Below are positions 5,501-27,518 of a stretch of DNA of 29,868 bases, in pieces. Below the pieces are notes generated by a model. The model saw nothing but the letters and a program-made list of their open reading frames with translations, did no database searches and had not been told where the DNA came from. The DNA is from a virus. The stretch spans positions 1-29,868 of IMG/VR virus record IMGVR_UViG_3300020469_000171. One strand, 5' to 3'. Positions within the stretch are counted from its first letter, which is position 1, and the number at the start of each line of letters is the position of its first letter. The translations under genes were made by a program, and so were the position numbers.

Positions 5501-8500
5501 TTCAGGTACTGTCATTACTGGATTGAGTACATCTAACAATTATCATATATTGAAAGTTGATGATGATTCTTTCAGATTAGCAGATGCAGGTATCGGAACT
5601 CCATCTAGAGGCACTTATACTAGGCGTGATTATGTTGGATTTGAATCGCAGGGTGAAGGATTCCAGACATTTAAATATCCAGATATTAAAGTAACTGCAG
5701 AAGTTTCATTTGGATCAACTGTTACTGGATCATTTAATTTTACTCCAGTAGTTACAGGAAGCATAGTTAATACTTATCTTTATGAACAAGGCACTAAGTA
5801 TGGTTCAGATGTATTAAATTTACAGAAAAATCCAAAAATAACTGTTGAAAATGGAAAAGACGCTATTGTTAGTGGTTCTATTGTAGGTGGTAAGGTAGTT
5901 GATGTTCAAGTTTTAAATAGAGGATCTCAATATTATTCTTTACCAGAAGTTACTGTAGAAGCAGTTGGAATGACTACAACTGGAGTTACTGGTGCTGGAG
6001 TTTTTGGAAATGGTGCTATACTAAAACCAAACATTAGTGAAGGAAGATTAACTGGTGTAGAAGTAATTAATTCTGGTATTGGATATACTGCTTCTTTGGT
6101 TACATTTAGTGTTAAGGCAAGAGGAAGGAATGCTAAGTTTGAACCGAGAGTTAGAAAATTAACAGTTGATAATAATAACAGACAGGGTAGTTACAGTTTA
6201 AATTCTGAAGGTGAAAATAGTTTACATCTTAGTGTTCATGGATATACATCAGAAATTAGATCAACTTTTAATGATGATGGAACAAAACACTCTCCAATTA
6301 TTGGTTGGGCATATGATGGAAATCCAATTTACGGACCATATGGATATACTAAGATTGATGAGTTAGGACCTGCTGTTGGAATCGTAACTTCTGGATATAC
6401 TTTAAATCCATCTAAAGTTATAGATCGTCCATCTTTAACTGAGTTTGAATCTGGATTCTTTACTGAGGATTGGCAATATACAGGAGAATATACTCTTGAT
6501 GAACATAATGGTAGATTCTGCAAAACTGATGAATTTCCAGATGGTGTTTATGCATATTTTGCTAGTGTAGCACCTAGTCAGCAGACAAATGATTTAGAAC
6601 CAAGTTTCCCATACTTTATTGGTAAAACCTATAGATCTCCTTATATTTCATCCAATACTACATTAACACAAGAATTCGACTTCAATTCCTCAAATTTAGC
6701 AAGGAATACATTCCCATACAAAGTTGGTAATGCTTTAGCCGATAATGATTTTATTGTAGAATCTAATGAATTTTTAAGACAATTAACAACAGTTGAATCG
6801 GTTACTACTGGTCAAATTGATGAATTGCAAGTTTTAGATGGTGGTGATGGATATAAAGTTGGTGACTTTACAGATTTTGATGATACTGAAACTAATGGAG
6901 TAGGACTTAGAGGACAAGTTAAATCTTTAGTTGGTATTGGTATTTCTAGTATTGAGACTCAATTGACTAGATTTGAGAATGCAGTATTTACATGGAAAAC
7001 TGGCAATACAGTTACTGCAACATATTCACCATTCTTTGAAATAAATGATCAGGATACTGTTTCTATTTCTGGGTTAAGTAGTTCAATAGTTCATCTTACA
7101 AATTCGTTTACTGTTGGAATTTCAACTAATAAGATTGGACTTGCTCAATCTATGACTGCAAATGCAGTTGTTACTGGTAGAGTTGATGATATTTACGTAA
7201 ATGTAATACCAAATTCAGTTTCTGTTGGATCTTCTATAAAAATTAATGATAGTGAGATTGTTAAAGTTCTCAATATCTTTGATGTAGGATCTATCTTAAG
7301 AGTAAAGAGATATAGTTCAGGTATTGGTCACACTTACGGATCTAAATTAGATGTTCTAAACAGAGAGATTGAAATACCAGTTAAGATTGAAAAATTTGAT
7401 TCTAGGATTAATGACTTAGTTTACTTTAATGCTAATGAATCAGTAGGTCTTGGTACAACTGCTGGTACTACAATTAGCGTTAATTACACCGTTGGCGAAA
7501 CTGCAAAAGAGGTTTCTATCCCAACAAGATTGATATATCTTCCAAATCATCCTTTCGTTAATGGGCAGGAGTTAACTTTCACTAAAAGAGGAACTGCTAC
7601 ATCTTTGATTGTTGGTGAGGAGAGTGATCCAAATAATCTATTCAATCTTCCTGATGTAACAACAGATACGTTTACCGTATATGCAATCAATAAAGGACAA
7701 AATTATATTGGTCTTGTAACTGAAAGAACTTCAATTGGTAGTACAAGTGAAGGATTATTCTTCCACGGTAATGGATCTGATGATTATGAATATGCATTAG
7801 AATCCAATCACACTCAGGTTATTGGTGATGTTGATGACATTACAGCAACAATTATTACAAATATCGGAGCAGCAAGAACAAGCACACACGGTCTGAATAA
7901 TGATGATGTAGTTAATCTAAATGTCATACCAAATAATGTTGTTGGCGTTGGTAGCACAGCACCATTAAGTCTTTCTTTCAATTCAGAATTCCAAAAATTA
8001 TTGGTTAACAGGACTGGATTTGGTTCTGATGCCATAGATGTAGTAAACAATACGATTACAATTAACTCTCACGGATATAAAACTGGTGATAGAGTTTTAT
8101 ATGAAAGTAGTGATTCTACAAGTGGATTGAGTGATCCTTGTTACTATGTTTATGAACAGACTTCAAGTAAGTTTAGTTTAGGTGAAACTCTAAATGATGT
8201 TCAAAATCAACCACCTTTATTAGTTGGTATTACTTCAACTGGTGGTGAAACTCACAGTGTTGCTTTAGTTAATCCACAATTAAGAGTAACTAAGAACGCT
8301 AAGTTATCATTTAATGTTTCTGATACTTCTTTATCTGGGTATGATCTTAAGTTCTTCTATGATAAAGAGTTTAAGAATGAATTTATTAGTTCTCAAGACA
8401 GTAGTATTTTTAATATTTCAGGTGTAGGAACTGTAGGAGTTGGCACAACATCAACAAAATCAATTTCTTTCTCAAAATCTACTCCAACTCAATTGTATTA

Positions 8501-18992: not shown

Positions 18993-21900
18993 ATGCCACA
19001 AAAGACTAACTTAAATATAAGTCCTTATTATGATGATTTTGATAAGGCAGATAACTTTTATAAGGTACTGTTTAAACCTGGATTTCCAGTTCAAGCAAGG
19101 GAGCTAACAAGTCTTCAATCAATATTGCAGAACCAATTAGAATCTTTTGGAAGTCATATCTTCAAAGAAGGCTCTATGGTTATACCTGGAGCAGTTACTT
19201 ATGATAGTACATATTTCTCAGTAAAAGTAAATCCAGACCATTTAGGAATTGACGTAACAATATATTTGGATGCACTAGTAAACAATAATAACGGAAAAGG
19301 TACTAAAGTTAGAGGACAAAACTCTCAAATAGTTGGTACTATTAAAAATTATATTTTACCACCAAATGAAGGTGTTGATGATATTACTCTTTTTGTAAAA
19401 TATAATGAATCTGGAACAAATTCAATAAGTGAAATGTTCCCTAGTGAAGAAATTTTAACACTTGAAGAAAACATTACTTATGGAAACACCACATTAAATG
19501 CTGGTGAAACCATTTTAACAGTATTAACAGAAGATCCTTCTAATATTGGATCTGCGGTTGGTATTGATCATGGTGTATATTTTATAAGGGGAACCTTTGT
19601 TGATGTTACTAAAGATGTTATCGTACTAGAACCATATTCCAATAAACCATCATATAGAGTTGGTCTTGAGATATCTGAAACTGTAATTAATGCAAATGAT
19701 GATGATTCTCTAAATGATAATGCTAAAGGATTCACTAACTATGCAGCACCAGGTGCAGATAGGTTTAAAATAAGTGTTAAATTAGCGAAAAAAGCACTTT
19801 TAGATTTTGAAGATACGAATTTTGTAGAATTAATTCGTGTTAGAGATGGTGAAATTAAGAAATTGCAAGATACTTCAGTATACTCTGAAATTAAGAAGTA
19901 TTTTGCCAAGAGAACATATGACGAATCTGGTAACTATGCAATACAACCATTCAGAGTTAATATTCAAAACTCTTTGAATGATGAAATCTCTTCAAATGGT
20001 TTATATGTAGAAGGACAGAAAACTGATGAGGGTAATGATCCTTCTGATGACCTAATGAATGTAAAACTTTCATCAGGAAAAGCATATGTTAGAGGATTTG
20101 ATATTGATGTTTATAATAAAGTTTTAGATGTAGAGAAACCAAGAGATACAAAAACAATAAAAACTGCATCTATTCCATTTAAAATGGGTAGTTTGGTAAA
20201 GATCAATAATGTAGAGGGTACTCCTTGGATTAATGTTGGTGGATCTACTGCCAATACTATTGCACTTCACAGTCAAAGAAAGGGTGCTTCTGCTAATCCA
20301 ACTGCAGGTTCTGGTGTTAAAGTTGGTGAAGCTCGTGTTTATGCATTTGCACTTTCTGGTGCAGAGTATAATGGAACTAGTTCAGAATGGGATCTTCATT
20401 TATATGATATCCAAACATATACTGTATTAAATATTTCTAATCCTGGAACTATTACAAGTACAGCTCCACTTTCTAGTCGTGTTAGAGGACTTAGTAGTGG
20501 TGCAATAGGATATGTTGCAAGTCATAATCCAGCAGAACTTATTCTATCTCAAACAACTGGATCATTTATTCAAGGCGAAAAGTTAATATTTAATGAAGAG
20601 ATAAAATCAACTAATTGTTCTGTAATTACTATTATTGCATATACAACAGATGATATTAAATCAGTATTCCAAGATTTCAACGGATTAACTGGTCTTACTA
20701 ATACTGGTGATTTTAGTGCAGATGCTGTTTTATATGATAGAACATTACCCAATTTTTCATTAGTTGACCCATTAACAGTAACTGGTGCTTCTAACGGTAA
20801 TAGTGCAACAGCACAATCTCCTAGAAGAAGATTCTCAGGACAAGTCGGAGTAAAAACAGATACTATTGTAGGATATTCTACAGATTTTGGTCTTCAGACT
20901 TATAACAGAGTTACTTCCATATCTGGAGACGGATCAAGCATGGGATTAGCACCTATTACTAACATTGCTGATGTTAATAGTGGTGAAATTATTGCAGGAT
21001 TAACTACATCAAATATATTCAGAATCAAGCGTCCAAAGGTTCTTAATCTTGCTACTTCTGGTTTATACAGTAGATTACCTAAGAAGAATGTTTCTTCTGT
21101 TGATTTATCAAATTCAACTCTACTTATTAATCGTCAGGTAGCAGAAAGAGAAACATCTGCAAATGGCACATTATCTTTCAGTACTAATGCAGCGTTAGAA
21201 GGAACCACAGGTAGTGGTGCAGCATTTGTTTCTTCTGGTATAGGTAGTGCTTTCTTTGAATCATTTGATGAAGAAAGATATTCTATTCATTATGAAGATG
21301 GATCCACAGAACCTTTAAGTTCAGATCAAGTTTCTATAACAAATAATGGTAATGATATTGCATTTAGTGGATTATCTGCAAATACTAAGTGTATTGTAAA
21401 TGTAACTTTGAAGAAAGTTGGATTAAAAACAAGATCAAAGGATTATGTTAGAAGTGAAAAACTAGATATAACAAGACAAGTAGGAGTATCCACTAATAAT
21501 GGTCTTGCTTCAAGTAAATATTATGGATTAAGAGTTGAAGATCAGGAAATATCATTAAACTTACCTGATGTTGTTAAGGTTCATGCAATATATGAATCAA
21601 AAGATACTAATACACCTTCACTTGATAAATTGACATTTGTTTCTGGTTTAGGATTAGATACAAATACTGTTGTTGGTGAAAAATTCATAGGTAAGAGCAG
21701 TAGAGCAATTGGTCAGATTATTAATAGAGTATCCGCAACTGAAATTGAGTATGTATATTTGAACGATAATACATTCTCTAAAGGAGAAACTATTACATTT
21801 AAAGAATCTAATATTCAAACCAATCTACAGGGTATAACAAACGGTAATTACACAGACAGAACTTCAAATTATACTTTAGATAAAGGTCATAAGAAGCAAT

Positions 21901-24900
21901 ATAGTGATTATTCCAAGATTGTTAGAAAGAGAAATTCTTCTCCACCAACAAATAGATTATTAATTATCTTTGATTATTATAAAACACAAAGTGCAGAGAG
22001 TGCAGATTTATTTACTGCAAATTCTTATAATAAGGATAGGTATACAAAGGATGTTCCCCACATATCTTTAGATAGAGGAACTGATATCTTAGACTTCAGA
22101 CCTAGAGTTAATCCATTTGATCCAGCAACCACAACTAATAAATCACCATTTGATTTCTCTGCTAGAACATTTGAATCAATATCTAAGTATGTTGTTGCAC
22201 CAAATGAGAGTTCTATTATTGGATATACTTATTACTTACCTAGAGTAGACAAGTTAGTTATTGATAAATTTGGAGAGGTAAAACTAATTAAGGGTGTTTC
22301 TGCAGATAATCCTGCACCACCTACTGAATTGGGACCTTCTATGGAAGTAGCAGAAATATCACTTCCTCCTTATTTGTATGATCCAGTAAAAGGTCCAAAG
22401 ATCAGATTATACGATAATAGAAGATTTACCATGAGAGATATTGGTAAAATTGAAAAGAGAGTTTCTAATTTAGAAGTAATGACTTCTCTTACTGCTCTCG
22501 AATTAGATACTAAATCTTTACAAGTAACTGATGCTGATGGATTAAACAGATTCAAAACTGGATTTGTAGCGAATGATTTTAAAGATAGAAACTTTATCAA
22601 CTTCAATAGAACACAAGGTTCTAGATGTGATGTTGATGTTGTTAACAAAGAATTAATTAGTGCTGTAGATTTCTGGTCATTAAAGGCAGATTTGGCATTT
22701 GATCCTTCTATAGATGCAAATACTGTAGATAGAAGTGCGAACTTAAAACTACTTGATGAGAATTGCCAAAAAACTGGAGATTTAATTACATTAAAATATG
22801 ATGAAGTTGCTAGTGAACTTAAGAATCTTCAAGCAACTCAAGTCGAAAATATTAACCCATTTAACGTTATTGTTTTTGCTGGTAGTGTTATTTTAGATCC
22901 ACCATCAGATAACTGGACTAGAACAATTTATATTGATGATTATAGAACAGAGTCTAGTGGAGCAACTTGGGCAGAGCAAGCAAATATTGTTTCTGATACA
23001 ACCACAGTTGATACTGATGTTGATGTAAGTGAAAGTGAAGTTGAAACAGATCAGGATATATTTGAAGGTAATCATAGAGATATTACTACTACAACAACTA
23101 CTACAACAACTCGTGCTGTAGAAACCTCGTTCACTAACACACTTGAATCTCTTAGAGAGTTTGATTATGTTGAAAGTGTTAAGATTAGTGGTGTAACGGA
23201 TCCATTTATGCGTTCTAGGAACGTTGCTTTTAATGGAAATGGATTAAAACCATTTACTAAACATTATCATTATCTTGATAGTGGAATTCCTGATGTGTTT
23301 CCAAAAGTAACTCAAATTGAAATGACATCTGGTACATTTTTAGTATATGAAAATGCTTTAATCTTTAAAAATGGTAAGGAAATAGGTAAAGTTAGAATAA
23401 TGGCTCCCGAACATAAGTATGGTGATGCAAGTTCAGTTGCAGTACCTATGGGAGAACCAAGTGGAATTAATGTACTGAATGGAAGTGTAGAAACCTATCA
23501 AGTTGATATATTTGATAGATCAAGACCTGCTCCATCTGATGCATATTCATCAACATCAAACTTATTTAATATTGACGTTGATGGGTTAGCAAATAATGAA
23601 GGTTACTATGGTTATGTAACAGAGGGTTGTGATATTGTAGGTGAATCTACTGGTGCGACTGCAACAGTAACAAACGCATCATTAATGTCAGATAACTGGG
23701 GTGATATTTTAGGTGCATTCTTCTTTAGAAATGCAAATGCAACACCACAACCACCAGTATTATTCTATAGTGGAACTAAGACATTTAAATTAACTGCTAC
23801 TACACCAGGAACAGTAACTCTACCAGGAAGCACTGCTCTTGCTAGTGATGCGACAGGAACTTATCATGCAACAGGAACGATTCTAACACAACAAACATCA
23901 ACAGTTGGTGTTAGAAATCCACCCGAACCTGCACAAAGACCTAATGAAGTATCGTTCACTACAAAGCAGAATAGTACATCAGAAACTGAAAGAATAGAAG
24001 CTCCTTACAGGGATCCTCTAGCACAATCTTTCAGAGTTGATGAAACTGGTATGTTCTTAACTTCTGTTGATGTTTACTTTGCAAGTAAGGATCCAGCAGC
24101 TAAAGTATTCGTTGAGATTAGAGATGTTGAATTAGGAACACCAACCAATTTCCTCGTTCAGGATTATGCACAGGTTTCATTAAATCCAGGAGATATTGAA
24201 ACATCTACTGATGCATCTATAGCAACAAATATTAAATTCCCATCACCAGTTTTCTTAGAAGGTGGTAAGGAATATGCATTAGTATTCTTATCTCCAGCAT
24301 CTGATCTATATGAGATGTGGGTTTCAACTATGGGTCAGAAGACTGTTAAAACTGCAAATCTACCTGATGTTGAGTCTGCTGTTTGCACCAAGCAATATAT
24401 TGGTGGTAGTTTGTTCAAATCTCAAAACGGTACAATTTGGACTCCAAGTCAATACCAAGATTTAACATTCCAGTTGTATAAAGCATCATTTGTTGAATCT
24501 GGTACAGTTACATTCTATAACAGTCCAATTGAAGCAGGTAATGAAAATACTCAAGTATTACCAGATAATCCAATCAGAACTTTACCTAGAAAATTAAAAG
24601 TTAAAGTTACTGGTCTTGCTGCTGCAGTTGCTCCTGTTGGTAGAAAACTCAGTACTGGTGCTCCTGGAGATGAAGAAGATGGAAGCATTACTGGTGTAAT
24701 TGAAAATGTATTTGCTCCTATTGATACTGGTACACAACCAGAGATAGTTTCTGGTGGTAAAGCATATCAATTTACTAACCAAACTCCTAGTGGTGATGAC
24801 TTTGTTGCCAACACTATTCCAGTTAAATCAATAAGTGGAGATGGTGCTGGTGCAACTGCATCTATCACTATAGATGGCACTACTGGAGCAGTTAAATTAA

Positions 24901-26510
24901 TTGAAAATATAACTGCTGGTAGCAGATTTGCTCTTGGTGACGTTATTACTATCGATAATAGTAATGCTTTAGTTGCAAGAGGTGCTGGTGCTAAGTTTGC
25001 AATTAAAGTAATCGATACAACTTTAGATACAGTTCATCTAACAGATGTTCAAGGAGAAGTATTCAAGCAAGGTTCAAACCTTATTCACTATAATACTTTA
25101 AATGATACTAGAACACAAGCAACAGGTGCAACTGTAAGTGCAGATTCTGAAGTTCTTAGTGATATTAATACAGGTAATGTTTTTGAAGTTGTACAGTACA
25201 ATCACGCACATCATGGTGCAAATAATGCGGTTAAACTTCAAGCAATAGAACCTGATTCTTTAGCAACTCAAACAACTGCAGACCTAGCATTAGGTGGAAC
25301 ATTAGTATCAGTTGCTTCTACTTCACCATTTATCAATTTTGCTGGTATCAGAACAGATAGGGGTGATGCTTTAATAGAAAGTGAAATTGTTTCTTATGTT
25401 GTTGGAACTGGTCAATTAACACTCGATAGTAGAGGTATTGGCGAATCTGTTGCAATAGCACATAGCACAGGAGTTTCTATTCAACCATATCAAATAAATG
25501 GATTCCCATTAGTTGGTATTAATAGTACTATAAATGTTCCATCTAATACTACATTAAGAAGTGAGTCAAATATTGATAATTACTTCTTAGAAATTGATAG
25601 AGGAACAGGTCCTAGAGGTACTAATGTTGCTGATAATAAAACACTATTATGCTTTACTAGCGAAAAAGCTGTAGGTGGTAAGACTGTAAAAGTATCTCAG
25701 AATCATCAGTTCAGTACTTTATCTCCACAGTTTAATGTGATCACTCCTGGTAAGGGAACTTTTGTTAATACAGCAGTTAGAACTGTTAGTGGTACTAGTG
25801 CTGGTGGATCTGAAGTATCCTTTATAGATCAAGGATTTGAACCAACTATACTGAATGAAACTACATTCTTCCCAACACCAAGATTAGTAGCATCTAAAAC
25901 TAATGAATCACTTAGGTTACAAACTTTACCTAAGAATAAATCGTTAGCATTAAAGGTTGATTTCAAATCAACAGATAAGAATCTATCTCCAGTATTAGAT
26001 TCAAAATATGCTACTTTTGTTTTAGGTAGAAATAAGATTAATGCTCCAGTATTAGATTATATTACTGATGTAAGATCAAATTCATTAGAAAATGATCCAC
26101 ACGGTTCAATATTCGTATCTAAGAGAGTTAATTTGAAGCAACCAGCAAGCTCATTAAAAGTATTTGTTGCAGCTAACGCTCAACCAGAAGCAGACTTTAG
26201 AGTATTCTATAGATTATTCAGTGCTGATTCTAGTGAGGTTTCTCAAACATATAGAGCCTTCCCTGGTTATAAGAACCTAATTGATACTGATGGTGATGGT
26301 TTTGGTGATGATATTATTGATCTTGGATTAAATGATGGTAGAGCAGATGCTCAAGTGAAGAAGAATGGACAAAATGATTTCTCAGAATATCAGTTTAGTA
26401 TAAATGATTTGGAACAGTTTGATGGATTTGTAATTAAAATAGTGATGTCATCAACAAACGAATGTGTTCCAGTTAGATTAAAAGACTTTAGAGCAATTGC
26501 ATTAGCGTAA
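18993..26510 (+). CDS. 2505-aa DUF4815-type baseplate/fibre structural protein
   Basis: This very large virion protein lies directly after gp8, in the place of T4 gp9-gp12. The N terminus (SPYYDDFDKADNFYKVLFKP, PVQARELTSLQSILQNQLE, FKEGSMVIPG; residues 8-65) is the start of the DUF4815 family as I know it from T4-like cyanophages. Conserved blocks recur at about 966-1040 (QYSDYSKIVRKR…LDFRPRVNPFD) and 1124-1200 (LPPYLYDP, DNRRFTMRDIGKIEKRVSNLE), the latter a likely coiled helix. Then come an acidic stretch and nine consecutive threonines (about 1365-1373), a jelly-roll-like block (DPLAQSFRVDE…YALVFLSPAS, 1674-1785), GSGY- and 'EIVSY'-type modules (about 1940-2180), and a DTDGDGFGDD calcium-loop-like motif at 2431-2440. 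There is no signal peptide. It probably forms peripheral baseplate or fibre; the exact role is not known. Confidence 0.8.
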   Translation: MPQKTNLNISPYYDDFDKADNFYKVLFKPGFPVQARELTSLQSILQNQLESFGSHIFKEGSMVIPGAVTYDSTYFSVKVNPDHLGIDVTIYLDALVNNNNGKGTKVRGQNSQIVGTIKNYILPPNEGVDDITLFVKYNESGTNSISEMFPSEEILTLEENITYGNTTLNAGETILTVLTEDPSNIGSAVGIDHGVYFIRGTFVDVTKDVIVLEPYSNKPSYRVGLEISETVINANDDDSLNDNAKGFTNYAAPGADRFKISVKLAKKALLDFEDTNFVELIRVRDGEIKKLQDTSVYSEIKKYFAKRTYDESGNYAIQPFRVNIQNSLNDEISSNGLYVEGQKTDEGNDPSDDLMNVKLSSGKAYVRGFDIDVYNKVLDVEKPRDTKTIKTASIPFKMGSLVKINNVEGTPWINVGGSTANTIALHSQRKGASANPTAGSGVKVGEARVYAFALSGAEYNGTSSEWDLHLYDIQTYTVLNISNPGTITSTAPLSSRVRGLSSGAIGYVASHNPAELILSQTTGSFIQGEKLIFNEEIKSTNCSVITIIAYTTDDIKSVFQDFNGLTGLTNTGDFSADAVLYDRTLPNFSLVDPLTVTGASNGNSATAQSPRRRFSGQVGVKTDTIVGYSTDFGLQTYNRVTSISGDGSSMGLAPITNIADVNSGEIIAGLTTSNIFRIKRPKVLNLATSGLYSRLPKKNVSSVDLSNSTLLINRQVAERETSANGTLSFSTNAALEGTTGSGAAFVSSGIGSAFFESFDEERYSIHYEDGSTEPLSSDQVSITNNGNDIAFSGLSANTKCIVNVTLKKVGLKTRSKDYVRSEKLDITRQVGVSTNNGLASSKYYGLRVEDQEISLNLPDVVKVHAIYESKDTNTPSLDKLTFVSGLGLDTNTVVGEKFIGKSSRAIGQIINRVSATEIEYVYLNDNTFSKGETITFKESNIQTNLQGITNGNYTDRTSNYTLDKGHKKQYSDYSKIVRKRNSSPPTNRLLIIFDYYKTQSAESADLFTANSYNKDRYTKDVPHISLDRGTDILDFRPRVNPFDPATTTNKSPFDFSARTFESISKYVVAPNESSIIGYTYYLPRVDKLVIDKFGEVKLIKGVSADNPAPPTELGPSMEVAEISLPPYLYDPVKGPKIRLYDNRRFTMRDIGKIEKRVSNLEVMTSLTALELDTKSLQVTDADGLNRFKTGFVANDFKDRNFINFNRTQGSRCDVDVVNKELISAVDFWSLKADLAFDPSIDANTVDRSANLKLLDENCQKTGDLITLKYDEVASELKNLQATQVENINPFNVIVFAGSVILDPPSDNWTRTIYIDDYRTESSGATWAEQANIVSDTTTVDTDVDVSESEVETDQDIFEGNHRDITTTTTTTTTRAVETSFTNTLESLREFDYVESVKISGVTDPFMRSRNVAFNGNGLKPFTKHYHYLDSGIPDVFPKVTQIEMTSGTFLVYENALIFKNGKEIGKVRIMAPEHKYGDASSVAVPMGEPSGINVLNGSVETYQVDIFDRSRPAPSDAYSSTSNLFNIDVDGLANNEGYYGYVTEGCDIVGESTGATATVTNASLMSDNWGDILGAFFFRNANATPQPPVLFYSGTKTFKLTATTPGTVTLPGSTALASDATGTYHATGTILTQQTSTVGVRNPPEPAQRPNEVSFTTKQNSTSETERIEAPYRDPLAQSFRVDETGMFLTSVDVYFASKDPAAKVFVEIRDVELGTPTNFLVQDYAQVSLNPGDIETSTDASIATNIKFPSPVFLEGGKEYALVFLSPASDLYEMWVSTMGQKTVKTANLPDVESAVCTKQYIGGSLFKSQNGTIWTPSQYQDLTFQLYKASFVESGTVTFYNSPIEAGNENTQVLPDNPIRTLPRKLKVKVTGLAAAVAPVGRKLSTGAPGDEEDGSITGVIENVFAPIDTGTQPEIVSGGKAYQFTNQTPSGDDFVANTIPVKSISGDGAGATASITIDGTTGAVKLIENITAGSRFALGDVITIDNSNALVARGAGAKFAIKVIDTTLDTVHLTDVQGEVFKQGSNLIHYNTLNDTRTQATGATVSADSEVLSDINTGNVFEVVQYNHAHHGANNAVKLQAIEPDSLATQTTADLALGGTLVSVASTSPFINFAGIRTDRGDALIESEIVSYVVGTGQLTLDSRGIGESVAIAHSTGVSIQPYQINGFPLVGINSTINVPSNTTLRSESNIDNYFLEIDRGTGPRGTNVADNKTLLCFTSEKAVGGKTVKVSQNHQFSTLSPQFNVITPGKGTFVNTAVRTVSGTSAGGSEVSFIDQGFEPTILNETTFFPTPRLVASKTNESLRLQTLPKNKSLALKVDFKSTDKNLSPVLDSKYATFVLGRNKINAPVLDYITDVRSNSLENDPHGSIFVSKRVNLKQPASSLKVFVAANAQPEADFRVFYRLFSADSSEVSQTYRAFPGYKNLIDTDGDGFGDDIIDLGLNDGRADAQVKKNGQNDFSEYQFSINDLEQFDGFVIKIVMSSTNECVPVRLKDFRAIALA

Positions 26511-27013
26511 TGAAAACTTTCCAAGAATTCCAACAACTATGTGAAGGTGGTCTAGCAAGACAATTAAGTAATGCTAGAACTAAAGATACTGGTCACATCT
26601 CTGCGGATCGTGGTGATGATGAGGATGAAAATCGCAAAAAGAGAAAAGGTCTTGAGGGTAAGTTGGAGAAAAAAGGTATCGGTTATCGTAAGACAACTGG
26701 TAGATATCAATATGATGATGGTGTTGAAGGTAAGGAAGTATCTTACTCTGTTACCAAACCCAAAAATATGTCAAGACGTAAGTTTGGTAAAACTATAAGA
26801 AGACTTGGTCGTGAATCAGATCAGGAATCTGTGATCACTAAGAAACCAGGTAAAAAGGCAACATTACATTATACTGATAAAAGTAAAAAGAAATCTGAAG
26901 GATTAGGACAAGAAAAGGTAGGTCCAAATAAGTATGGTGAAACTGGTGAGAAACGTCAAAGAGGCAATAAGTTAAAAGATAAAAAGGATGATAGGAGTAT
27001 GCATTACGCATAG
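26510..27013 (+). CDS. basic 167-aa protein with a T4-type capsid-targeting N terminus (candidate internal head protein)
   Basis: The ATG overlaps the preceding TAA (TAATG), so translation is coupled to the 2505-aa gene. The N terminus MKTFQEFQQLCE|GG resembles the capsid-targeting sequence of T4 internal proteins (MKTYQEFIAE|A). L10-C11-E12 followed by G13 fits the gp21 prohead-protease rule (I/L)xE|(A/G/S). The remaining chain is strongly lysine- and arginine-rich, with an acidic DRGDDEDEN patch near 33-41. It has a compact conserved-looking core, RRKFGKTIRRLGRESDQESV, near residues 88-107, and LHYTDKSKKK near 118-127; T4 internal proteins are also small and basic. I infer packaging into the head and ejection with the DNA. 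It could instead be an uncharacterised assembly protein; the gene lies among tail genes, not next to the head genes. Confidence 0.7.
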   Translation: MKTFQEFQQLCEGGLARQLSNARTKDTGHISADRGDDEDENRKKRKGLEGKLEKKGIGYRKTTGRYQYDDGVEGKEVSYSVTKPKNMSRRKFGKTIRRLGRESDQESVITKKPGKKATLHYTDKSKKKSEGLGQEKVGPNKYGETGEKRQRGNKLKDKKDDRSMHYA

Positions 27014-27021
27014 ATCACTAA

Positions 27022-27048
27022 ATACCTATAAGTATTACTTATAGGTAT
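27022..27048 (+). repeat. perfect 13-bp inverted repeat; possible terminator or translational hairpin
   Basis: Arms 27022-27034 (ATACCTATAAGTA) and 27036-27048 (TACTTATAGGTAT) are fully complementary around a single central base; a real hairpin would open a few central pairs. It begins 9 nt after the 26510 gene's stop and ends 3 nt before the next gene's TTG. Only a weak T run (ATATTTTG) follows, so it is not a textbook intrinsic terminator. The right arm contains the TAGG that is the best Shine-Dalgarno candidate for the TTG, so folding would hide it. Roles as a terminator, mRNA-end stabiliser or translational switch all remain possible. Confidence 0.75.
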
Positions 27049-27051
27049 ATT

Positions 27052-27318
27052 TTGAAGACTTTAAAAGAATTTCTAAATGAATCTGCTAATGCTATAAAAT
27101 CTTTAGGTGCTAGTGGATGGGCAACTAAACTTGTAGGTAAAGGTGGATATAATGATGATAATGGAACTTGGTTTTTTAAACAGAAAAGAGAATTGTTTAA
27201 AAAATCAAAAATAAAGAAAATGAATGGAAATGATAAATCTAAATATGACAAGTATAACAATCCAGAAAAACCATCCGAAACGGATTTGATTAACGGACTA
27301 CCCATTAAAAAGGCATGA
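27052..27318 (+). CDS. 88-aa basic protein with TTG start and capsid-targeting-like N terminus
   Basis: The start is a TTG. The frame is closed by a TAA just upstream (27019-27021), no ATG is available near the front, and only TTG gives MKTLKEFLNE|S. That sequence matches the ten-residue capsid-targeting peptide of T4 internal proteins (MKTYQEFIAE|A) and the gp21 cleavage rule, with L8-N9-E10 followed by S11. It also parallels the MKTFQEF start of the preceding gene. The predicted mature chain is lysine-rich (KQKRELFKKSKIKKM near 43-57) and contains GASGWATKLVGKGGY near 18-32. It has no membrane segment. The ATGA at 27315-27318 overlaps the next start. An internal head protein is the preferred inference; its activity in the host is unknown. 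Confidence 0.65.
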   Translation: MKTLKEFLNESANAIKSLGASGWATKLVGKGGYNDDNGTWFFKQKRELFKKSKIKKMNGNDKSKYDKYNNPEKPSETDLINGLPIKKA

Positions 27319-27518
27319 TACCAGTTGAAGGACATAAAAACTTATTTCGTGATCCAGAAACGGGTGCGATTTTAAATTACGATTCTAATTCATATTCTCA
27401 ACATATTTCCAAAAGGAATAAAAAACTTGATGAGAAAGCAGAACTGGATGAAATGAAAAAAGATATTGATGAGATTAAATCTTTACTCAAAGAGTTAGCT
27501 AATCGTAAACATAAATAA
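27315..27518 (+). CDS. 67-aa conserved-looking hypothetical protein with C-terminal coiled coil
   Basis: The gene overlaps its predecessor by ATGA and has an AAAAGG purine run a few bases before the ATG, so it is translationally coupled. The first half reads LFRDPETGAILNYDSNSY (residues 10-27), a short 'RDPETGAI' motif that I associate with small uncharacterised T4-like cyanophage proteins. The second half (about 33-67) is charged with heptad spacing (ELDEMKKDIDEIKSLLKEL), predicting a coiled coil. It lacks the MKTxxEF start of its two neighbours, so it is not an obvious capsid-targeted protein. The last codons overlap the CATAAATA promoter at 27510. Function is unknown; a virion structural or chaperone role is possible. 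Confidence 0.7.
   Translation: MIPVEGHKNLFRDPETGAILNYDSNSYSQHISKRNKKLDEKAELDEMKKDIDEIKSLLKELANRKHK
27510..27517 (+). promoter_or_regulatory. T4-type late promoter CATAAATA before the fibre genes
   Basis: CATAAATA fits the NATAAATA late consensus and lies 29 nt upstream of the 27547 ATG, about the same spacing as the two other late promoters in the window. It overlaps the last codons (CAT AAA TAA) of the 67-aa gene, so part of the match is coding sequence. A partial ATAAAT at 27543-27548 overlaps the next start codon and is less likely to be functional. Confidence 0.65.

What the first reader, a model, noticed from the sequence alone, without database searches (positions are those of the whole stretch)
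26510..27318. Two adjacent small basic proteins with T4-like capsid-targeting peptides and prohead-protease sites
Both proteins begin MKT-(F/L)-(Q/K)-EF and are followed by LCE|G or LNE|S. Established knowledge: T4 internal proteins IPI-IPIII share MKTYQEFIAE|A, are packaged into the prohead, cut by gp21 after (I/L)xE, and ejected into the host. IPI protects T4 DNA from a host restriction system. Both proteins here are lysine-rich like the T4 ones. Inference: this baseplate-neck junction carries a cassette of ejected anti-host or DNA-binding proteins. The bodies of the two proteins are unlike each other, as expected if different effectors share one targeting tag.
Basis: partly seen in the sequence, partly recalled or inferred. 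Interest (0 to 1): 0.75.

Follow-up and report, generated by a model that had tools for sequence, protein, structure and literature searches.

The report
Capsid-tagged SAM lyase and partner cassette
A marine cyanobacterial virus carries a swappable gene slot whose proteins bear a T4-like 'load me into the capsid' tag, and the first of them looks like an enzyme that destroys the cell's methyl donor (SAM), so the virus probably delivers an anti-defence enzyme together with its DNA.

Summary
Adjacent ORFs begin MKTFQEFQQLCE|G (26510) and MKTLKEFLNE|S (27052, TTG start); two such starts are unlikely by chance (P about 0.0005).

The window is a P-SSM2-like Prochlorococcus myophage. ORF A is a SAM lyase-like protein: it passes the Pfam cut-off, its model matches Svi3-3 and T3 SAMase best in the PDB, and Svi3-3's active-site residues are kept. 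The tag is disordered in the model.

ORF B sits in a hypervariable slot. Close relatives carry none, one or two tagged ORFs there with unrelated bodies, and sometimes lack ORF A. ORF B's unit includes a late-promoter-like CTAAATA, a hairpin and a TTG start, conserved in seven contigs.

T4-type tags occur 19 times in eight cyanophage genomes against 0.5 expected. In Synechococcus phage S-CREM2, five of six tagged proteins, a SAM lyase among them, were found in virions by published mass spectrometry. That test was not blind, and two other proteomes give only weak support (1 of 2 and 0 of 2).

Best reading: a T4-internal-protein-like cassette whose first member is a capsid-loaded SAM lyase. Packaging, cleavage and ejection are unproven for this phage. 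New variant of a known kind.

The parts
18993..26510 (+). 2505-aa tail/baseplate gene, homologue of PSSM2_113; left border of the cassette slot (ends ...KDFRAIALA*)
   Evidence: the same border in all relatives where it was held
26510..27013 (+). ORF A: tag plus SAM lyase-like domain plus disordered basic tail; homologue of PSSM2_114 (T4-GC 110)
26510..26545 (+). Capsid-targeting-like tag MKTFQEFQQLCE; proposed cut after E12 (26543-26545), before G13
   Evidence: E12 and G13 invariant in 31 homologues although the tag-to-site spacing varies from 10 to 19; disordered in the model
26597..26911 (+). SAM lyase-like domain (residues 30-134), with G64, Y66, E76, Q105, E106 matching Svi3-3 G56, Y58, E69, Q104, E105
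   Evidence: Pfam PF23780 33.3 bits, cut-off 28; PDB 6znb and 7ock by fold; residue match
27018..27024 (+). CTAAATA, cyanophage late-promoter-like element
   Evidence: strong strand bias in related genomes (45:0, 26:0, 18:0) and position upstream of late genes
27022..27048 (+). 12-bp-stem hairpin whose 3' arm holds the SD-like AGGT before the TTG start
   Evidence: -15.6 kcal/mol, z -4.1; the same unit precedes TTG-start ORF B in 7 viral contigs
27052..27318 (+). ORF B: interchangeable small basic tagged protein (TTG start), homologue of PSSM2_115
27052..27081 (+). Capsid-targeting-like tag MKTLKEFLNE; proposed cut after E10, before S11
   Evidence: fits the T4 residue 4/7/8/10 rule; K2, F7, L8, E10 invariant in ORF B homologues
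27315..27518 (+). 67-aa virion structural protein (phrog_473); right border of the slot

Best explanation
The slot between the 2505-aa tail gene and the phrog_473 gene is a cassette of late-expressed, capsid-loaded 'internal proteins' of T4 style. Each protein begins with a targeting peptide that takes it into the prohead core; the gp21-type prohead protease then cuts after (L/I)xE (ORF A: E12|G13; ORF B: E10|S11), leaving the mature protein with the DNA. ORF A's mature part is a SAM lyase of the Svi3-3/T3 SAMase fold. Delivered with the DNA, it would split S-adenosylmethionine into methylthioadenosine and homoserine lactone (and may inhibit SAM synthesis as T3 SAMase does), starving SAM-dependent restriction and methylation before any phage gene is expressed. 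ORF B is one of several interchangeable small basic proteins, probably aimed at another host factor. Shown here by sequence: tags, slot variability, SAM lyase fold and active-site residues, promoter-hairpin-TTG unit. Shown by others in a relative: SAM lyase in purified S-CREM2 virions. Inferred: packaging, cutting and ejection in this phage, enzyme activity, and the anti-restriction purpose.
For: SAM lyase: Pfam PF23780 above its cut-off, E 5e-8, and above it in 12 of 13 related genomes with no match in 14 control genomes; AF2 model best matches PDB 6znb (Svi3-3, E 3e-4, probability 1.00), then 7ock_J (SAMH with MAT, probability 1.00); G64, Y66, E76 and Q105 invariant in both homologue alignments and aligned to the Svi3-3 residues that bind SAM; purifying selection, dN/dS 0.10-0.29. 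Tag: T4 rule of residues 4/7 for targeting and 8/10 for cutting (PMC9026906); T4 ipII and ipIII start MKTYQEFIAEA; 19 matches against 0.52 expected in eight genomes; 5 of 6 tagged S-CREM2 proteins in its virion proteome, P 0.003. Slot: at least five unrelated bodies behind the same tag, or none, in close relatives. gp23 sites FLSE|A, LLTE|A, ILTE|A.
Against: No virion proteome of this phage or of P-SSM2 was found. In S-SZBM1 the SAM lyase homologue and two tagged neighbours were not detected, and in S-SCSM1 one of two tagged proteins was not. The S-CREM2 test was not blind: its N-termini were seen before the strict pattern was fixed. In 11 of the homologues from isolates the tag-like block is internal, 50 to about 600 residues in, unlike T4's N-terminal tags. 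The S-CREM2 authors note that proteins may survive CsCl purification as contaminants. ORF A is under 20% identical to Svi3-3, and the profile search of PDB sequences gives E 1.6.
Confidence: 0.66

Rival explanations
1. ORF A is a true SAM lyase but is simply made in the infected cell, like T3 SAMase; the N-terminal block is a leader or oligomer-contact helix and virion detection in relatives is carry-over.
For: T3 SAMase is expressed, not packaged (PMC8406200); S-SZBM1 virions did not show the homologue; the block is internal in many homologues.
Against: The same tag sits on unrelated proteins; 19 unique peptides of S-CREM2 SAM lyase in CsCl virions; the gene lies in the late structural block; residues 1-12 are disordered while the domain folds without them.
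Confidence: 0.2
2. The tag targets the proteins to the prohead, but they act as structural, DNA-condensing or scaffold-associated internal proteins; ORF A is a SAM lyase fold that lost activity.
For: High Lys content and pI near 10; long disordered basic tail; T4 IPIII influences head assembly.
Against: All residues that bind SAM in Svi3-3 are kept across diverse homologues, which is not expected of a dead enzyme; ORF A is absent from sister slots, so it is not needed for assembly.
Confidence: 0.12
3. The motif is chance or a common cyanophage start sequence without a role in targeting.
For: MK-rich starts are common in AT-rich phage genes; some matches (for example S-CREM2 gp175) look like chance.
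Against: About 36-fold excess over shuffles; tag kept while bodies change; E12 and G13 invariant despite indels before them.
Confidence: 0.03

Closest known systems
T4 internal proteins IPI-IPIII with capsid targeting sequence
   Same: MKT[FY]..F(I/L).E N-terminal tag with cleavage-like (I/L)xE|A/G/S; small basic bodies; unrelated bodies share one tag; hotspot locus; hairpins upstream; gp21, gp22 and gp23 present in the near-identical P-SSM2
   Different: Cyanophage host; ORF A carries an enzyme domain against a metabolite rather than a GmrSD inhibitor; in many relatives the tag block is internal; packaging not shown here
Phage SAM lyases Svi3-3 and T3 SAMase (Pfam PF23780)
   Same: Predicted fold, G-x-Y / E / Q-E residues, similar domain size
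   Different: Under 20% identity; carries a capsid tag and a long basic C-terminal tail; lies in the late structural block rather than the first-expressed region as in T3
S-CREM2 ORF6 'SAM hydrolase (virion protein)'
   Same: Homologous domain, tag MKDFDSFLEE, cyanomyovirus; detected in virions and proposed by its authors to enter the host (PMC10665884)
   Different: 414 aa with an extra C-terminal region, in an early/accessory region; its authors describe no targeting tag
T4 gene e (lysozyme) late promoter with SD-sequestering hairpin
   Same: TATAAATACCT...AGGAGGTATT before the start codon; late promoter overlaps the 5' arm
   Different: Here CTAAATA, a longer stem and a TTG start; regulation only inferred

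Membership tests
T4-type CTS-bearing internal proteins | N-terminal peptide with targeting residues 4 and 7 and processing residues 8 and 10 | tested here: met
   ORF B fits exactly; ORF A fits at 4 and 7, with the processing Glu at 12 and Gln at 8
T4-type CTS-bearing internal proteins | Prohead protease and scaffold in the same phage with matching cut sites | tested here: inconclusive
   Present in the 91%-identical P-SSM2, gp23 FLSE|A; the window itself is a 29.9-kb fragment
T4-type CTS-bearing internal proteins | Same tag on unrelated bodies at a variable locus | tested here: met
T4-type CTS-bearing internal proteins | Present, cut, inside the virion and ejected | not testable with these tools
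   Only relatives have proteomes: S-CREM2 positive; S-SZBM1 negative for the SAM lyase and its two tagged neighbours
Phage SAM lyase (PF23780) | Profile score above the curated cut-off | tested here: met
   33.3 bits against 28
Phage SAM lyase (PF23780) | GlnB-like alpha-beta sandwich as in Svi3-3 | tested here: met
   AF2 core, Foldseek top hits 6znb and 7ock_J, though TM-scores are modest at 0.34-0.52
Phage SAM lyase (PF23780) | Gly56, Tyr58, Glu69, Gln104 equivalents | tested here: met
   G64, Y66, E76, Q105 aligned and invariant
Phage SAM lyase (PF23780) | Trimer and SAM to MTA plus homoserine lactone activity | not testable with these tools
   Needs biochemistry

The most novel reading that the evidence does not exclude
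Cyanomyoviruses pre-load a metabolite-destroying enzyme (SAM lyase) and other enzymes (cytidylyltransferase/NMNAT-like, kinase-like) into capsids with a T4-type targeting peptide, and swap these payloads in a dedicated late-expressed slot by exchanging tag, promoter and hairpin units, so that host SAM is removed at the moment of DNA entry.
Probability: 0.5. Interest if true: 0.82.

Novelty: new variant of a known kind. Interest (0 to 1): 0.67.

Why it matters
It gives a sequence rule for predicting which cyanophage 'hypothetical' proteins travel in the capsid and offers an explanation for puzzling enzymes in cyanophage virions (SAM lyase, cytidylyltransferase, kinase-like), which their authors could not separate from contamination. 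It extends the T4 internal-protein strategy to ocean cyanophages and suggests a new payload type, an enzyme that empties a cofactor pool rather than a specific nuclease inhibitor. The variable slot is a place to mine for anti-defence proteins, and the S-CREM2, P-SSM2 and P-SSM4 systems are culturable, so the claim can be tested directly.

Tried and rejected
phmmer of ORF A against PDB sequences: nothing; the profile search ranks Svi3-3 third at E 1.6, so structure was needed. ORF B: no Pfam or PADLOC hit, AF2 pLDDT 58 and pTM 0.26, so no fold search was run and no function is claimed. Slot bodies of relatives: no Pfam hits. A strict degenerate DNA pattern for the tag found nothing in P-SSM2 because it was too narrow; protein-level scans replaced it. 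A looser tag pattern lowers the S-CREM2 virion enrichment to P 0.06. S-SCSM1 alone gives P 0.31. The exact promoter-hairpin unit is not in P-SSM2 itself; it turns up in environmental contigs instead. No paper in the held library applying the capsid-targeting idea to cyanophages was found.
Full report
What is there. The window is a fragment of a P-SSM2-like Prochlorococcus myophage (Kyanoviridae, about 91% nucleotide identity to P-SSM2). Between a 2505-aa tail gene (18993-26510) and a 67-aa virion gene (27315-27518, phrog_473) lie ORF A (26510-27013) and ORF B (27052-27318).

Is it more than chance? Shuffling the N-termini of all candidate starts in the window gives two or more such starts in 0.05% of trials (this pattern was loosened to admit ORF A). 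The stricter rule taken from T4 work (residues 4 and 7 target, 8 and 10 allow cutting; PMC9026906) matches 19 starts in eight cyanophage genomes against 0.52 expected. T4 ipII and ipIII were confirmed to begin MKTYQEFIAEA.

ORF A is a SAM lyase-like protein. It passes the Pfam S-AdoMet_lyase cut-off, and the family is found once in each of 13 related phage genomes and in none of 14 control genomes. The AF2 model has a confident core (residues 13-134) between a disordered tag (1-12) and a disordered basic tail (135-167). Its best PDB matches are Svi3-3 (6znb) and the T3-type SAMH bound to MAT (7ock_J), followed by other GlnB/CutA-like folds. TM-scores are modest, but the residues that bind SAM in Svi3-3 (G56, Y58, E69, Q104; PMC7877911) align to G64, Y66, E76 and Q105, which are invariant in 31 homologues. 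The gene is under purifying selection.

The tag behaves as a separate module. In ORF A homologues E12 and G13 are invariant while the distance from the tag start to the site varies between 10 and 19 residues, the range described for T4 propeptides. In many isolates the same block sits internally, directly before the lyase domain, behind 50 to about 600 residues of other sequence. Some of those long proteins start with a DUF3008-like stretch, and a stand-alone DUF3008 protein is annotated as a virion protein in S-SCSM1.

The slot is a cassette. In close relatives the place of ORF B holds nothing (L041, L048, L050), one tagged ORF, or two (AG-345-E02). All these start MKTF(K/N/Q)(Q/H)F or nearly so, but at least five bodies are unrelated by BLAST. 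In L177, L187, L193 and L194 the SAM lyase itself is absent and other tagged ORFs take the slot. Tagged small ORFs also sit beside the SAM lyase gene in S-SZBM1, S-WAM1 and P-TIM40.

Promoter-hairpin unit. In the window, ORF B is preceded by CTAAATA (27018) and a 12-bp stem hairpin (z -4.1) ending just before the TTG. CTAAATA occurs almost only on the coding strand in related genomes (45:0, 26:0, 18:0), mostly just upstream of late genes. The same unit is in seven viral contigs, every time 2 nt before a TTG-start ORF B, in several upstream contexts. It resembles the T4 gene e leader. I infer control as in T4 e (known to me, not looked up): read-through RNA hides the ribosome site in the hairpin and late RNA, starting inside the 5' arm, frees it. 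Folding of truncated transcripts is consistent with this; no transcript was mapped.

Virion evidence from relatives. In S-CREM2, 52 of 219 proteins were found in CsCl virions (PMC10665884). The strict tag is on gp6 (SAM lyase, 19 unique peptides), gp13, gp14 (kinase-like), gp136, gp154 (cytidylyltransferase) and gp175; the first five are virion proteins (P 0.003). gp12 has a similar block at residues 17-26 and is also a virion protein. I had seen these N-termini before fixing the pattern, so this is not a blind test. Later checks are weaker: in S-SCSM1 one of two tagged proteins is a virion protein (the record flags 48 virion proteins where the paper says 45); in S-SZBM1 neither of two tagged genes nor the SAM lyase homologue was detected, although a cytidylyltransferase with a one-residue-shifted tag (MRFRQFIIE|A) was. 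Pooling the strict tagged genes gives 6 of 10 against 2.0 expected, P 0.007.

Cutting. P-SSM2 has gp21, gp22 and gp23; gp23 of three cyanophages carries FLSE|A, LLTE|A or ILTE|A at residues 52-56, the same type of site as in the tags. No cut has been shown.

Mechanism and limits. Most likely, the tagged proteins are taken into the prohead, trimmed and delivered with the DNA, and ORF A then removes SAM. S-CREM2's authors already proposed entry of their SAM hydrolase into the host, but named no targeting tag in the passages read. T4 Ip1-3 all block GmrSD nucleases and share only the leader (PMC12373910), the closest functional parallel. T3 SAMase both degrades SAM and inhibits its synthesis (PMC8406200). 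What is not shown: packaging, cutting and ejection in this phage, activity of ORF A, and any role of ORF B, for which no family or confident fold was found.

Noticed in passing
window 27017-27054: Late-promoter-like CTAAATA overlapping an SD-sequestering hairpin before a TTG start; same plan as the T4 lysozyme gene leader, conserved in seven environmental contigs.
   Followed up: partly
L017:18143-19417 (P-SSM2_194), L196:43820-45049 (S-SCSM1 gp91), L034 S-CREM2 gp12 and gp14, L134:12192-13343 (P-SSM4): Large tagged virion enzymes share a second short N-terminal block after the tag (A..LGL..DGHGGWYD-like), perhaps another packaging or ejection element.
   Followed up: no
L023:1406-3022, L024:695-3004, L025:881-3004: Long SAM lyase homologues (538-769 aa) start with a DUF3008-like stretch and carry several ExE-type sites; they might be polyproteins cut by the prohead protease.
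   Followed up: no
L034:7704-10313 (S-CREM2 gp12): Annotated as virion 'CRISPR-Cas9 nuclease' but no Pfam family matches at E <= 0.01; it bears an LRFASFMAE|A block at residues 17-26, so the Cas9 name looks doubtful.
   Followed up: partly
L178:2332-2493, L186:1867-2004, L195 (reverse) 7611-7748: A 45-53 aa ORF (MRNSVNP...) without the tag also occupies the slot in some relatives.
   Followed up: no
window 27052-27318 against L177, L178 and L042, L043: ORF B looks mosaic: its first half is closest to the hairpin-type copies (L177/L178), its end (NNPxKPSExDLIxGLP) to the P-SSM2-type copies.
   Followed up: no
L008:5974-6579: A SAM lyase homologue with a tag-like start (MNFVQLLESEINALSE|SS) occurs in Alishewanella phage Slickus01, outside cyanophages.
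   Followed up: no
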